Origin: Alphaproteobacteria bacterium
GTDB lineage: Bacteria; Pseudomonadota; Alphaproteobacteria; Micropepsales; Micropepsaceae
Reading direction: 5' to 3'
Assembly: GCA_025935155.1 (NCBI GenBank)
Contig: JAICVV010000120.1
Location: 1 to 6,576 of the forward strand
DNA: 6,576 bases
Every line of letters begins with the position of its first letter. Position 1 is the first letter of the stretch. Shown here piece after piece: positions 1,744 to 6,576 of this stretch. A program made the position numbers and the translations under genes. The notes under the pieces are model-generated. The model had not been told where the DNA came from. It searched no databases and was given only the letters and a program-made list of their open reading frames with translations.

Positions 1744-1899
1744 ATGCTCGGCACCATCCTTATCATCATCCTTATTCTGCTTCTGCTCGGCTCATGGCCA
1801 GCGTGGCCCTATAGCCGCGGCTGGGGCTACTATCCGAGCGGGCTGTTGGGCGTGGTGCTGATCGTCATTATCGTTCTGGTCCTGCTGGGAAGATTCTGA
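1744..1899 (+). CDS. DUF3309 small membrane protein
   Basis: This 51-residue peptide has a hydrophobic N-terminal segment (about 2-16, rich in L and I), a short aromatic centre with W18, W21, W27 and a GYYPSG turn (28-33), and a second hydrophobic segment (34-49). That is the pattern of DUF3309, a family of very small proteobacterial membrane proteins of unknown function, usually two helices in the inner membrane. A GGGGA stretch at 1734-1738 gives a suitable ribosome-binding site. It follows an EcfG-type promoter, which suggests induction by general stress. It ends six bases before the LigD phosphoesterase start and in the same reading frame, so the two are probably one operon. No function can be assigned from sequence. 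Confidence 0.88.
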   Translation: MLGTILIIILILLLLGSWPAWPYSRGWGYYPSGLLGVVLIVIIVLVLLGRF

Positions 1900-1905
1900 C
1901 GAAGG

Positions 1906-2652
1906 ATGCCGGGCTCGCGCCTCACTCTTTATAACCGGAAGCGCGATTTTGGCGTGACGCCGGAGCCGCCCGGCCGAGTCGGCAAAAGCGTGGGAAAGAA
2001 ACGCCGCTTCGTTATCCAGCGGCACGCGGCGACGCGGCTGCATTTCGATCTGCGGCTGGAGCTTGACGGCGTTTACAAATCCTGGGCGGTGACGAAAGTG
2101 CCGTCGCTCGATCCCGGCACACGCCGCCTGGCCGTCGAGGTGGAGGATCACCCGCTCGATTACGGGACCTTTGAAGGAACAATCCCGAAAGGCGAATACG
2201 GCGGCGGCACGGTGCAGCTCTGGGATCAGGGCACCTGGCGCCCGCAATCTACCGGCGATCCGGAGCGCGATCTTGCGCGCGGCAATCTGAAGGTTTGCTT
2301 CGATGGCAAGCGCATGCATGGCGGTTGGGCTCTCATCCGCTTGCGCGATCGCGAGCAGGGATTTCGCCGCACCCCTCGGCACAATTGGCTTCTCATCAAA
2401 GAAAACGATGAGTATGCGAAGCCCGGTGATGCCGACGCGCTTGCTTCTGAAACGACCTCCGTGAAAACCGGACGAACCCTCGAAGAAATTGCCAGCCGCT
2501 CGCGAAACGTGTGGCATTCAAATCGCAGCCAGACGGAGCCGGAATCTGCCCCCAAGTCACGCGCCGCCTCTGAGCGCGCGAAAAAGCCGGCACGGCGCAA
2601 AGCGCTCGTAAAGCCGAAACCCGCAGCTAAAAAAAAACTCAAGAAGCGCTGA
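1906..2652 (+). CDS. ligD: LigD 3'-phosphoesterase (PE) module, N-terminal part of a split LigD
   Basis: The PE module trims 3'-phosphate and 3'-ribonucleotide ends before ligation in bacterial non-homologous end joining. Catalytic residues match Pseudomonas LigD at an offset of two: R13-D14, H40, H46, D48, R50, R74, H82 and Y86. Motifs QRHAATRLHFDLRLELDG (38-55) and IPKGEYGGG (93-101) are clear, as is the conserved RTLEEIA and VWHSNR region after the domain. The tail becomes lysine-, alanine- and proline-rich and ends after three AAA codons at a nine-A run. Length is 248 residues, as in stand-alone PE proteins, but the tail resembles the PE-to-ligase linker of intact LigD. The start keeps R13-D14. 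Its purines GAAGG abut the ATG too closely, so GGGAAGA (1887-1893) or coupling to DUF3309 may drive translation. Confidence 0.92.
   Translation: MPGSRLTLYNRKRDFGVTPEPPGRVGKSVGKKRRFVIQRHAATRLHFDLRLELDGVYKSWAVTKVPSLDPGTRRLAVEVEDHPLDYGTFEGTIPKGEYGGGTVQLWDQGTWRPQSTGDPERDLARGNLKVCFDGKRMHGGWALIRLRDREQGFRRTPRHNWLLIKENDEYAKPGDADALASETTSVKTGRTLEEIASRSRNVWHSNRSQTEPESAPKSRAASERAKKPARRKALVKPKPAAKKKLKKR
2629..2637 (+). other. Nine-A slippery run at the LigD split
   Basis: Nine A residues are read as three lysine codons in the PE frame and contain the heptamer A AAA AAA (2631-2637) in correct register for -1 slippage. The -1 frame has a TAA at 2628-2630 just before the slip point, then is open from 2631 through the ligase module. 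The first residues in it are T-Q-E-A-L-N-A-P-R-A-V before the methionine at 2670. No strong stimulatory stem is obvious downstream; a small GCGG-TCATG-CCGC hairpin (2664-2676) is present. A homopolymer error in the read or assembly would look identical. Confidence 0.6.
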
Positions 2653-2669
2653 ACGCCCCGCGCGCGGTC

Positions 2670-4613
2670 ATGCCGCAATTCGTGGAGCCGGAACTCGCGC
2701 GCATGGTGGATCTGCCGGCGGGTGGCCCACTTTGGGTCCATGAAATCAAATTCGACGGTTATCGCATGCAGCTGCGCGTGGAAAAGAAGCGCGCAGTGCT
2801 GCTTACCCGCAAGAAGCTCGACTGGTCGCACAGGTTTCCTGAGATTATCGCCGAAGCGCGATCCTTGCCGGATTGCATTATCGACGGCGAAATCGCAGCG
2901 CTCGATGCGCGCGGCATTAGCAACTTTAGCGACCTGCAATCGGCGCTGTCGGACAAAGAGACTGCGGGGCTCGTCGATTTCGCGTTCGATCTGCTTTTCC
3001 TCGCGGGCCACGATCTGCGCGGGCTGCCGCTTATCGAGCGAAAAACGCTGCTTGAGCAGCTGCTGAGCAAAAAACTGCCGCCTTTATCGCGCATCCGTTA
3101 TGTCGAGCACTATAAATCCTCCGGTAAGGAGATGCTCGAAGCTGCCTGCCGCACGGGATTGGAGGGTGTAATCTCCAAGCGCGCCGATCAGCCGTACAAA
3201 TCCGGCCGCGGCAACGACTGGACCAAAGCCAAATGCCGCGGCGGCCAGGAGGTGGTGATCGGCGGCTGGAGGGGCGACGCCAACAATCTGCGATCGCTGC
3301 TGGCTGGCGCCTATCGGGACGGCAAGTTCCTGTATATGGGCCGCATTGGAACCGGGTACAACGTGAAATCTGCCGGCGAGTTGCTGCGCAAATTAAGGCC
3401 GCTGGAAATTGCGCAGCCGGCATTTGCGAATGCCGGCGAAATTCCGCGCGCACGCGATCTTCACTGGGTCGAGCCGAAACTGGTTGCGGAAGTGGAATTC
3501 GGCGCCATAACCTCGGCCGGAATACTGCGGCAGGCCAGCTACAAAGGCCTACGGGAAGATAAACCCGCCAAAAACGTGGTGCTCGAACCGCAACCGGCGG
3601 CGGCAGAGTCGAATAACAATCACAGCACATCCATGCAGAAGGCGAACGCAAGCACGCCTGCAGCAAAAACGGTGGTGGCAGGCAAAAAAGGTGTGGTGAG
3701 CGGCCATAAAGGCCTCATCGTGCGCGGCGTGGCCATCAGCAATCCGGACAAAGAATTGTGGCCTGCCACAAACGATTCACCGGCCGTCACCAAAGGTGAA
3801 CTCGTCCGCTATTACGAAATGGCAGCGTCGCGCATCCTGCCGCACATCGCGGGCCGGCCGCTTTCGATTGTGCGTGGACCGGACGGCATAGGTGGCGAGC
3901 AGTTCTTTCAGCGTCATGTCGTGCCCGGCCTGCAAGCTTATGCAAAACCCATTCGGGTTACCGGCGAAAGCAAACCGTATTTCTCGATCGACACTGAAGA
4001 CGGCCTGGTCGCGCTGGGGCAGGTCGCCGTCTTGGAGCTGCATCCCTGGGGCGCCAAACCGGGCGAGCCCGATATGCCGGAGCGCCTCACCTTCGATCTC
4101 GATCCGGCGCCGGATGTGCCGTTTGATGCGGTGATTGCCTCTGCGAAGGACATGCGCGCGCAATTGCAGCATCTCGGCTTCACGCCTTTCGTGAAGACGA
4201 CGGGAGGTAAAGGCATTCACGTGGTGGTCGCGATCAAGGGCGCACCGAAGAAGCCGCTCACCTGGACGCAAGCCAAGGAATTCGCGCGTGACGTGTGCCT
4301 GCAAATCGAGCAGGGAGCGCCTGACCGCTATACCACCAACATGTCCAAAAAGGTGCGAGGCGGGAAAATCTTTCTCGATTTCCTCCGCAACGCACGTACC
4401 GCAACGGCCGTGGCGCCCTGGTCGCCGCGGGCGCGCCCCGGCGCCACGATTTCCATGCCGCTGCAATGGAGCAAGCTGAAACCTGGTCTCGACCCGGCGC
4501 AGTTCAGCATTCCCAATGCCGCAAAGCTCCTGCGCGGAAGCGATCCGTGGAAAGATATCGACGCCACCGCCGTGAGTTTGGCGGCCGCCCGAAAACGGCT
4601 GAACGCGAGTTGA
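2670..4613 (+). CDS. ligD: LigD ATP-dependent DNA ligase plus polymerase/primase module
   Basis: This protein seals double-strand breaks and fills ends in Ku-dependent end joining. In 647 residues, the ligase nucleotidyltransferase carries KFDG (K27 is the adenylated lysine), IDGEIAALD (71-79), FAFDLLFL (104-111), LEGVISKR (164-171) and WTKAKC (184-189). An OB fold runs to about 305 and a low-complexity linker to about 345. The LigD polymerase domain (349-647) shows ELHPWGAK (456-463), DLD (D476, D478), GGKGIH (512-517, H517) and FLDFLRN with the third metal aspartate D570. All key residues are intact, so it is no decaying gene. Ligase-then-polymerase order is the Pseudomonas and rhizobial type. 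The ATG at 2670 has only GC-rich sequence upstream and no Shine-Dalgarno; its first residues, [10 protein letters not shown], correspond to internal linker in intact LigD. See the slippery run at 2629-2637. Confidence 0.93.
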
Positions 4614-4707: not shown

Positions 4708-5637
4708 ATGGCGCTGCAGGACGACGCCGGCAATTTGGACACCAACTTGCGCACGCTGGCCCGCTGGCGCTCGACTGCGCGTGTGCTGGTTGAAGCATTG
4801 CCGAACATCCTGAAATACGACGGCAAAACTATCGTTGTGAAATATGGCGGTCACGCCATGGAGGGCGGCGTTCCCCAACACTTTGCCCAGGACATCGTAT
4901 TGATGAAGCAGACGGGCATCGGCCCCATCGTGGTGCATGGCGGAGGCCCGCAGATCGGCTCGATGCTGAAGCGCCTGTCGATCCCGTCGAATTTCGTGGA
5001 CGGGTTGCGGGTAACAGATGCGGCCGCGATCGATGTGGTGGAGATGGTGCTCACCGGCTCCATAAACAAGCAGATCGTAAGCGGCATCAATGCCGCCGGC
5101 GGCCGCGCCGTCGGCATTTCCGGCAAGGATGGCAATCTCGTCATTGCCCGCAAGCTCGAACGCATCAAGCTCGATCCGCATACACTGCTGAGCAAAGCCG
5201 TCGATCTTGGCTTTGTCGGGGAGCCCGAAGCCGTGAACGCCGAAGTGCTTCGAACCATTATCGATTCGGCGCTTATTCCGGTCGTGGCCCCCATCGGTGT
5301 GGGGCGGAAGGGTGAAACCTACAACATCAATGCCGATACGGTTGCGGGTGCGGTCGCCGGCGCGATGAAGGCAACACGGCTGATGCTGCTGACCGATGTG
5401 GAAGGTGTACTAGACAATGACGGCAAGCGCATCCGGCGGCTCAGTGTGCCGGAGGCCCGCGCGCTGATTGCCAACGGCACCATTTCTGGAGGAATGATTC
5501 CGAAGATCGAAACGGCCATAGAGGCGGTGGAAGGTGGCGTGGATGCCGCTGTCATCCTGAATGGCCGCATCCCGCACGTTATCCTGCTGGAGCTCTTCAC
5601 CGAGCACGGCGCTGGAACCATGATCACCGCGGAATGA
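4708..5637 (+). CDS. argB: N-acetylglutamate kinase
   Basis: ArgB phosphorylates N-acetyl-L-glutamate with ATP, the second step of arginine biosynthesis, in the cytoplasm. The 309-residue amino-acid kinase shows VKYGGHAM (44-51, K45 binding the phosphates), VHGGGPQI (76-83), a conserved R101 in the GLRVTD stretch, NINADTVAG (206-214, with D210 as the catalytic organiser), LLTDVEG (227-233) and GGMIPK (261-266, K266). The C terminus ends in EHGAGTMI, a family signature. About 25 residues before the first strand, including a helix near 20-36 ([16 protein letters not shown]), match the N-terminal helix of hexameric, arginine-feedback-inhibited enzymes that E. coli ArgB lacks, so feedback inhibition is likely. 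AAGGA six bases before the ATG supports the start. The stop overlaps the next gene's start as ATGA. Confidence 0.96.
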
Positions 5638-6576
5638 CCTTTCGCAGATTGCTACAAGCGGCTTGTGCGCTCGCTTTCGTGCTGTGCGGTGCTCCGCCGG
5701 CGCAGGCATCGCTGAAGCTCTGCAATCAGACCAGCTACATCCTTTATGTGGCGGTCGGTTCCGCCACAAAAAAGGAGCTTGACACGACAGGCTGGCTGCG
5801 GATCGTGCCGGGCGACTGCGCCACGCCAATCTCAGAACTGCTTAGGGCGCCCGCCTATTTTCTCTATGCGCGAACTTCGCGGGCTCACTCTGGGCCGATG
5901 CGGGCCTGGGGCGGCAACGTGCAGATTTGCGCCCGCGATACGAACTTTACCCAGCGCACGAAGCTGCCGGTGCGCGGTTGCCCGAGCAACGAATTTTACA
6001 AGATGCCGTTCGCCGTTCTGGACCGCCACGGCCACACCACGTGGACCACGACTTTCAAGGAATCGCCGAGTCTTCGAACACTGAAGGATGCGAAGCATGC
6101 GGGCGTGAACCGCCTGCTGGAAGACCTCGGCTACCATGTGAACGTGCCGGGAGAGCGCGCCCACGATCAGGCGCTGGAAGATTTTCACCGCCGCACCAAA
6201 CTGCCGGCGGATGCAAACGAGGCGGAGCTTTTCGCCGCCCTCGAACTGCAGGCAACGAAGAAGGGCTCTCCTGCTGGGTATACCGTGTGCAACAGCAGCG
6301 AGCAGCCGGTGTGGATTGCGATTGGGCGGCAAGCCCAAAAGGGCATTGCCACGCGCGGGTGGTGGGAAGCGCCCGCGGGTGCTTGTTCGCGGGTGATCAG
6401 CGAAACGCTGCACACCAATGGCGTGTATCTCTTCGCTCGCGGCAAAGGGAAACAACCGCCCATTGTTACCGGAGGCACGAAGCTCTGCATTCGCGGCACC
6501 GAGTTCGACCTCAACGGCGCCCAGCCCTGCTCCGGCAAAGGTTTCAGCAAGGCAGGCTTCGCCTTTACGGATACCC
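5634..6576 (+). CDS. Secreted tandem-DUF1036 protein (3' end beyond the window)
   Basis: This open frame runs without a stop to the window end, so only 314 residues are visible. Residues 1-25 form a Sec signal peptide (RR near the start, a hydrophobic core, cleavage after AQA), with no lipobox. Residues 27-145 and 216 onward are two copies of a DUF1036-like domain. Each has four cysteines (C30, C62, C99, C116; C219, C251, C285, C299) with matching landmarks: LCN or VCN, TxGW, a G-C loop, YLYAR or YLFAR, and C-x-R-x-T-x-F. Between them, about 148-207 looks helical and faintly like a peptidoglycan-binding domain ([10 protein letters not shown] then [11 protein letters not shown]). Four-base ATGA overlap with argB indicates translational coupling. 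Function is unknown; an envelope or periplasmic location, with disulfide bonds, is inferred. Confidence 0.82.

What the first reader, a model, noticed from the sequence alone, without database searches (positions are those of the whole stretch)
1906..4613. LigD split at a nine-A slippery run: possible programmed frameshift or transcriptional slippage
Seen: the PE frame ends 13 bases after a run of nine A (2629-2637) holding A AAA AAA in correct register. The -1 frame is open from 2631 to the ligase module, so one -1 slip, or one extra A in the mRNA, joins both into a 902-residue protein. The -1 frame just before the ATG at 2670 reads [18 protein letters not shown], which resembles the PE-to-ligase linker of intact LigD proteins. 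The ATG at 2670 has no Shine-Dalgarno. All catalytic residues in all three domains are kept, against simple decay. Inference: the cell may make both a free phosphoesterase and full LigD at a set ratio. The dull alternatives are a homopolymer read error or a recent mutation.
Basis: partly seen in the sequence, partly recalled or inferred. Interest (0 to 1): 0.72.

Follow-up and report, generated by a model that had tools for sequence, protein, structure and literature searches.

The report
Slippery-run switch in DNA-repair ligase
In bacteria likely related to Rhizomicrobium the gene for the break-repair enzyme LigD is cut into two reading frames, and 12 of the 16 cut copies examined carry a run of eight or nine A's at the cut, where slippage likely lets one gene yield both a free end-cleaning enzyme and the whole repair ligase.

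Summary
In detail: ligD is split into a 248-aa phosphoesterase (PE) frame and a -1 ligase-polymerase frame overlapping at A9 (2629-2637). It is not a one-genome error. Among 35 family LigD loci read at the junction, 16 are split, always -1; 15 form one clade with one re-fused member, and 12 of these 15 carry A8/A9 (9 A9, 3 A8), in two codon phases. Of 94 fused LigDs, 2 have A8 and none A9. A fused gene with in-frame A8 (G002) is the likely sister of the split clade. Both modules are under purifying selection in the pairs tested; between run and conserved ligase motif, two run-bearing loci have no ATG/GTG/TTG and two only an in-motif GTG; no ligase ATG tested has a Shine-Dalgarno. The 120 best ligase database hits are all too short to be full LigD. 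Ku is in 16 of 17 genomes searched. Best reading: conserved programmed -1 frame transition giving PE plus full LigD, more likely by transcriptional slippage (runs longer than ribosomal slipping needs, no stimulator common to all) than ribosomal. Main rival: two coupled genes, since 10 of 16 split loci keep an ATG. No protein or RNA data. Five searches showed me no paper on ligD recoding.

The parts
1906..2652 (+). PE frame (LigD_N 3'-phosphoesterase, 248 aa, stop TGA 2650-2652)
   Evidence: PF13298 6.6e-41; TIGR02777; 2LJ6 4.2e-48, active-site residues kept
2017..2340 (+). LigD_N domain match
2629..2637 (+). A9 run, conserved slippery site
   Evidence: A8/A9 in 12 of 16 split family loci
2628..2630 (+). 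TAA in the -1 frame at the start of the run: upstream limit of any productive frame change
2631..2652 (+). 22-base overlap of PE frame and ligase frame
2638..2669 (+). trans-frame linker read in -1 (ending ALNAPRAV) between run and ATG 2670
   Evidence: no -1 stop from run to ligase in 12 of 12 run-bearing loci
2631..4613 (+). ligase-polymerase frame (-1 relative to PE); conventional ORF starts at ATG 2670 (647 aa)
2733..3233 (+). ATP-dependent DNA ligase catalytic domain PF01068
3282..3563 (+). ligase C-terminal (OB) domain PF04679
3789..4550 (+). LigD primase-polymerase domain PF21686

Best explanation
The nine-A run between the phosphoesterase and ligase frames of this ligD is a conserved slippery site at which RNA polymerase likely adds one extra A to part of the transcripts, which would put the two frames in line, so that the gene is predicted to yield both a free 248-residue phosphoesterase and the full 902-residue LigD. 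Unslipped transcripts would stop 12 bases after the run and give the phosphoesterase alone. Shown: the conserved layout, direction, run and reading-frame limits, purifying selection on both modules in the pairs tested, and Ku in the same genome. Inferred: that the slip occurs, that RNA polymerase rather than the ribosome does it, and that the two products have distinct uses. In lineages that lost the run, stop-start overlaps (ATGA or GTGA) probably took over as coupled reinitiation.
For: Split layout in one clade: 15 split loci plus one re-fused member, among fused LigDs; the ligase is at -1 in 16 of 16 split family loci, counting one outside the clade. A8/A9 in 12 of 16 split loci against 2 of 94 fused, Fisher 4e-11; A9 in 9 of 16 against 0 of 94 (loci are related, so the P values overstate). 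Synonymous resampling expects 3.4 of 15 clade splits to have A>=8; 12 do. Runs sit in two codon phases and at different linker positions, yet always keep -1. -1 frame open from run to ligase in 12 of 12, +1 in 5 of 12 (shuffles give all 12 open in 3.4%). L004 has no ATG/GTG/TTG at all in the ligase frame from its opening at the run to nt +42; L007 only a GTG at +12, inside the conserved P-x-F-V motif; L006 none between run and +36 and L005 only a GTG at +9, though both have a GTG or ATG far upstream inside PE. dN/dS 0.08-0.33 in the nine clade pairs tested, which include L004, L006 and L007 but not L005. No Shine-Dalgarno (<= -3 kcal/mol) at any ligase-frame ATG, GTG or TTG tested at or up to 60 bases before the module's first codon. 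Fused likely sister with in-frame A8 (L136). 120 of 120 listed ligase hits are 484-744 aa although up to 1132 was allowed. No stimulator common to the 11 run-bearing loci tested. Precedent: reporter cassettes with A-runs gave 63, 40 and 10% shifting at 11, 9 and 7 As (PMC3711429, passage).
Against: No RNA, protein or read data. Ten of 16 split loci keep ATG at the ligase start, so separate translation is possible there. The linker is Lys-rich: resampling gives A>=8 with P 0.16-0.48 in eight of the 12 run-bearing loci, window included (0.37). The run is absent in L009, L012 and L023, where the split persists. The shift direction is constant, which by the rule in PMC3711429 (section 10) would predict ribosomal shifting. 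Four of 11 loci (L005, L007, L010, L011) have an upstream Shine-Dalgarno-like duplex of -3.0 to -3.8 kcal/mol, as strong as the weakest gene start in the window, and three (L022, L024, L025) a downstream fold at z below -2; both are possible ribosomal stimulators. On re-check I lowered this odds figure from 0.54 to 0.52 for the first of these.
Confidence: 0.52

Rival explanations
1. The same -1 frame change at the A-run is made by the ribosome (programmed -1 frameshifting on A_AAA_AAA or A_AAA_AAG), giving the same two products.
For: All 12 run-bearing loci hold an in-register A_AAA_AAN heptamer in both codon phases, and the three A8-G loci hold A_AAA_AAG. Direction is always -1, which PMC3711429 section 10 takes as a sign of ribosomal shifting. 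Upstream Shine-Dalgarno-like duplexes of -3.0 to -3.8 in 4 of 11 loci, all three A8 loci among them, and downstream folds below z -2 in three others.
Against: Six or seven A suffice for the heptamer, yet all 12 runs are A8 or A9. Neither kind of stimulator is shared by the 11 loci tested; L002, L003, L004 and L006 show neither.
Confidence: 0.26
2. Two separate genes, PE and ligase-polymerase, translated separately or by termination-reinitiation at the start codon near the PE stop; the run is a by-product of a Lys-rich tail.
For: ATG at the ligase start in 10 of 16 split loci against 5 of 19 fused family loci, P 0.04. ATGA or GTGA stop-start overlaps in L009, L012, L025 (ATGA) and L010, L011, L023 (GTGA). 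Two genomes (G022, G035) have PE and polymerase as true separate genes with ATGA and no run. Many database ligases are called from M-P-x-F. L005 and L006 have ligase-frame GTG or ATG far upstream inside PE.
Against: No start at all in L004 up to nt +42, and none or only an in-motif GTG after the run in L005, L006, L007, with purifying selection where tested. Met at that place is also common in fused LigDs: 33 of 75 named, so against all 94 fused P is 0.11. No Shine-Dalgarno. A8/A9 far above the codon-usage expectation. -1 frame open upstream of the ATG, with A-P-R kept before it in two subclades.
Confidence: 0.17
3. Phase variation: the run changes length during replication, switching full LigD on and off between cells.
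For: Long A runs are likely hypermutable by replication slippage (PMC1088944, passage).
Against: All 12 run-bearing split loci are in the same -1 state; a switching tract should show in-frame lengths too. Of the two fused family loci with A8, L136 falls outside the split clade and L020 among the other fused genes.
Confidence: 0.03
4. Sequencing error or recent decay in this metagenome-assembled genome.
For: The window is a whole contig of an 82% complete, 465-contig assembly. One other family locus (L135) looks like such an accident: shift inside a conserved linker element, no run.
Against: Same layout in 14 other genomes of the clade, three of them in one to three contigs; the 120 best ligase hits in the protein database are likewise without PE; catalytic residues kept.
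Confidence: 0.02

Closest known systems
Transcriptional slippage at tssM1 of Citrobacter rodentium (PMC4256274, abstract and outline seen)
   Same: Poly-A run before a stop, extra A restores the frame, short and full-length products from one gene, both needed.
   Different: A11 in a secretion gene; here A8/A9 in a repair ligase, where the short product is a complete enzyme domain, and no experiment exists.
dnaX (PMC3711429, PMC5009743 and PMC1088944, passages seen)
   Same: A-run of similar length giving two products; orthologues use transcriptional or ribosomal shifting.
   Different: In T. thermophilus dnaX the slippage product is the shorter one (PMC1088944, passage); here it would be the longer.
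Bacterial LigD of P. aeruginosa type, PE-ligase-polymerase (PMC8656161, passages seen)
   Same: Domain families, PE active-site residues, Ku in the genome.
   Different: PE and ligase are in different frames joined only by a frame change.
Separate PE, ligase and polymerase proteins of archaeal end joining (e.g. Methanocella paludicola; separate genes recalled, PE structure 5DMP)
   Same: Free PE is a workable enzyme.
   Different: There wholly separate genes (recalled); here overlapping frames with a slippery run.

Membership tests
LigD (PE-Lig-Pol) | PE, ligase and LigD polymerase domains in that order | tested here: met
   four Pfam domains and TIGR02777/02779/02778 above their cut-offs; the whole-length model NF004628 is below its cut-off for each half (280 and 774 against 895 bits)
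LigD (PE-Lig-Pol) | one continuous reading frame | tested here: not met
   -1 frame break at 2629-2652
LigD (PE-Lig-Pol) | Ku partner in the genome | tested here: met
   own genome yes; 16 of 17 searched
Programmed transcriptional slippage gene | A or T run of about 8-9 or more in the overlap of two frames of one protein family | tested here: met
Programmed transcriptional slippage gene | run and layout conserved beyond neutral expectation | tested here: met
   12 of 16, with relatedness caveat
Programmed transcriptional slippage gene | mRNAs with changed A count and both products detected | not testable with these tools
   no RNA or protein data
-1 programmed ribosomal frameshifting | X_XXY_YYZ heptamer in register | tested here: met
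   12 of 12 run-bearing loci
-1 programmed ribosomal frameshifting | stimulatory upstream Shine-Dalgarno-like site or downstream structure | tested here: inconclusive
   11 loci (L137 not included): upstream duplex -3.0 to -3.8 in 4, downstream z below -2 in 3 others, neither in 4
Coupled two-gene operon | downstream start codon at the junction in every locus | tested here: not met
   none from run to nt +36 in L004 and L006; in-motif GTG only in L005 and L007

The most novel reading that the evidence does not exclude
A whole lineage of alphaproteobacteria gates its end-joining ligase by RNA-polymerase slippage: each ligD message makes free 3'-phosphoesterase by default and full LigD only when the polymerase stutters at an A8/A9 tract, so the ratio of end-cleaning to end-joining is set at transcription, and in the lineages without a ligase start codon end joining depends on the stutter.
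Probability: 0.4. Interest if true: 0.78.

Novelty: new member of a known kind. Interest (0 to 1): 0.62.

Why it matters
Conserved programmed frame changes in bacterial housekeeping genes are few (recalled), and I found none described for a break-repair ligase. If real, it ties the output of error-prone end joining to transcription fidelity and makes a free phosphoesterase a regulated product. It also suggests an evolutionary path: a fused gene with a Lys-rich linker gains an A-run, loses frame, keeps both products by slipping, and later drifts to re-fusion (L008) or to coupled genes (L009, L012, L023). It warns that many 'separate' PE and ligase proteins in databases may be halves of one protein.

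Tried and rejected
Sequencing error and pseudogene: rejected by conservation in relatives. Phase variation: disfavoured because all 12 run-bearing split loci share one state. Ribosomal stimulators: looked for in 11 run-bearing loci; present in some, common to none. Avoidance of A9 in the genome: 6 copies in 2.46 Mb is not fewer than a simple base-frequency estimate of mine (not from a call), so I do not claim avoidance. The other five A9 sites showed no frame-linked gene pair that I could recognise; not pursued. Selection on the stretch between PE stop and ATG: only 17 bases in the closest trio, with third-position changes in A-P-R-A; suggestive, too short to test.

Corrections made on the way: L135 was first counted as fused and corrected; the tree label, the M counts and the Fisher tests still carry the old label. 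L041 in the named set is a duplicate of G002. L133 was missed by the motif match and has Met; the same kind of match missed L003, which has ATG at the start. The linker was measured from the PE core to the ligase in family loci and as the last 180 bases before the ligase in named loci.

Not in the counts: 13 further family matches (one is a second copy in G076) with frames of 806-1001 aa, taken as fused by length without reading the junction, and short or partial matches (G014, G036, G084 and others; one search found no PE in G014 and G036). Class-wide survey: matches at E<=1e-140 in 14 of 190 genomes; 11 of these lie outside the family, with 12 matches, all in frames of 847 aa or more, so fused by length only.

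Full report
What is there. The window is contig 249 of a metagenome-type assembly (2.46 Mb, 465 contigs, 82% complete). Its ligD is split. PE, 1906-2652, is a complete LigD_N phosphoesterase with the residues that bind metal and substrate in the P. aeruginosa enzyme (alignment to 2LJ6; residue roles from passages of PMC8656161). The ligase-polymerase module, 2670-4613, carries PF01068, PF04679 and PF21686. It lies one frame behind PE; the two frames overlap in 2631-2652, and A9 at 2629-2637 fills the start of the overlap.

Not an accident of one genome. Searches with the ligase module covered 96 genomes of the family; an order-wide search returned the same 96. I read the PE/ligase junction in 35 family loci: L002-L031 from the searches, and five more (L133, L135-L138) out of 11 stretches fetched. 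Sixteen are not in one frame, and in all sixteen the ligase is at -1. One of these, L135, lies outside the clade, has no run, and breaks inside a conserved linker element; it looks like an ordinary mutation or assembly error and serves as contrast. The other 15 form one clade with L008, a re-fused gene nested beside L006 (midpoint-rooted trees). Support for the clade is 100/100 (14 split loci and L008) and 83/74 in the larger tree, where the group of L136 plus the clade has 100/99. L136 (G002, also found as named record L041) is fused and has an in-frame A8 in its linker: a plausible intermediate, its place just outside the clade resting on the 83/74 fork.

The run. Nine of the split loci have A9 (L002-L006, L022, L024, L025, L137), three have A8 (L007, L010, L011), and L009, L012, L023 and L135 have none (longest A run 3-5). 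Among 94 fused LigDs (19 family loci and 75 named loci, mostly alphaproteobacterial, after removing four duplicates and one record without PE from 80) two have A8 (L020, L136) and none A9. Fisher P is 4e-11 for A>=8 and 2e-9 for A>=9; related loci make these too small. Synonymous resampling of each PE tail with the gene's own codon use expects 3.4 of the 15 clade splits to reach A8; 12 do. In L006, L007, L010 and L011, where Lys is mostly AAG, the chance is 0.03-0.06 each; in the other eight it is 0.16-0.48 and in the window 0.37, so the window alone would not convince. The runs fall in two codon phases and end 29 to 105 bases before the ligase start, yet all need the same -1 step. From run to ligase the -1 frame has no stop in 12 of 12 loci, against 5 of 12 for +1; shuffled stretches stay open in all 12 in 3.4% of trials.

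Is the ligase translated without a shift? Ten split loci have ATG at the ligase start. None of these, nor the other ligase-frame ATG/GTG/TTG codons within 60 bases before the module, has a Shine-Dalgarno by duplex energy (+1.9 to -2.1 kcal/mol); GTG codons at +12, inside the conserved motif, reach -5.6 in L024, -3.3 in L010 and L011 and -2.6 in L007. Met at the same place is common in fused LigDs (5 of 19 family, 33 of 75 named), so it need not be a start; the excess in split loci is P 0.04 against the family and 0.11 against all 94. L004 has no ATG, GTG or TTG from the opening of the ligase frame at the run to nt +42, past the conserved P-x-F-V-x-P-x-L motif. L007 has only a GTG at +12. L006 has none from the run to +36 and L005 only a GTG at +9, but in both the ligase frame is open far back into PE and holds a GTG at about -140 (L006 also an ATG at -336), so those two are weaker cases. 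dN/dS for ligase-polymerase is 0.12-0.33 and for PE 0.08-0.24 in nine clade pairs, which include L004, L007 and L006 (the last only against the re-fused L008); dS exceeds 1 in some. So these ligases are selected as proteins. Run and start complement each other: the three clade members without a run all have an ATGA or GTGA stop-start overlap, and no clade member lacks both run and start. Three run-bearing loci (L010, L011, L025) have such an overlap too. True separation looks different: G022 and G035 have PE and polymerase as neighbours with ATGA, no run, and the ligase on another contig.

How wide. The 120 listed PE hits of the protein database (of 7895) are 169-262 aa; the search itself admits only 136-434 aa, so fused proteins could not appear. 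91 of 120 have KKK in the last 60 residues, and in the nearest ones KKK sits right before the C-terminus while the rest of the tail varies. The 120 listed ligase hits (of 7907) are 484-744 aa, although up to 1132 was allowed. By a simple motif match 77 start at or just before the P-x-F motif, 3 further upstream, and 40 do not match it; some of the 40 are only spelling variants or contig-cut, and others are called from inside the module, as expected if no start precedes it. Names given include Rhizomicrobium sp. and Micropepsaceae bacterium; the window's own genome has no name here, so that placement is inferred. In 190 genomes of the class, 14 had a match at E<=1e-140; 11 lie outside the family, and their 12 matches are all in frames of 847 aa or more. 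Ku is in the own genome and in 16 of 17 genomes searched (the 15 clade splits, G010 and G002); the one miss, G011, is 75% complete.

Mechanism. A slip at the run is the simplest account of the conserved run, fixed direction, open -1 frame and missing starts. Transcriptional slippage is favoured because all 12 runs are A8 or A9, while a ribosomal heptamer needs six or seven A, and because no stimulator is common to the 11 loci tested. Passages of PMC3711429 give An with n>7 as transcriptional sites and report 40% shifting in a reporter cassette with nine As; PMC1088944 passages give nine as the usual length where slippage is selected against. Against it, PMC3711429 section 10 would read a constant direction as ribosomal, though shared descent could explain the constancy either way. 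Four loci, among them all three A8 loci, have an upstream Shine-Dalgarno-like duplex (-3.0 to -3.8 kcal/mol), and three others a strong downstream fold, so part of the clade may shift on the ribosome.

Novelty. Five literature searches over the held library turned up no paper on recoding of ligD in what I saw of them: two returned no paper, and in the others I saw only the top listings. PMC3711429 and PMC5009743 (the latter held in part) do not mention DNA ligase in the text searched. PMC7719229, a survey of bacterial end joining, has no 'frameshift' or 'split' in its text. Slippage-made product pairs are a known kind (tssM1, PMC4256274 abstract; dnaX), so this is a new member of a known kind, in a gene class where I know of none. 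No wet evidence exists; the claim rests on comparative sequence.

Noticed in passing
L135 (G033), PE-ligase linker: A fused-clade ligD with a -1 break inside the conserved linker element and no A-run: likely an ordinary frameshift or assembly error.
   Followed up: partly
L143 (G022) and L145 (G035), with L132 and L134 for the ligases: LigD taken apart in another way: PE and polymerase lie side by side as two genes with an ATGA overlap, while the ligase sits on another contig.
   Followed up: partly
L136 (G002, same as L041): Fused ligD with an in-frame A8 in a Lys-rich linker, likely sister to the split clade; slippage there would make truncated PE.
   Followed up: partly
window 1744-1899: 51-aa DUF3309 hydrophobic peptide gene ends six bases before the PE start; possibly co-transcribed with ligD.
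   Followed up: no
window 5634-6576: DUF1036 protein with two DUF1036 stretches, cut by the contig end; its start overlaps the stop of the amino-acid-kinase gene (4708-5637, argB-like).
   Followed up: no
L114, reverse strand near base 248: Another A9 of the own genome lies a few codons into a small ORF; whether it slips is unknown.
   Followed up: no
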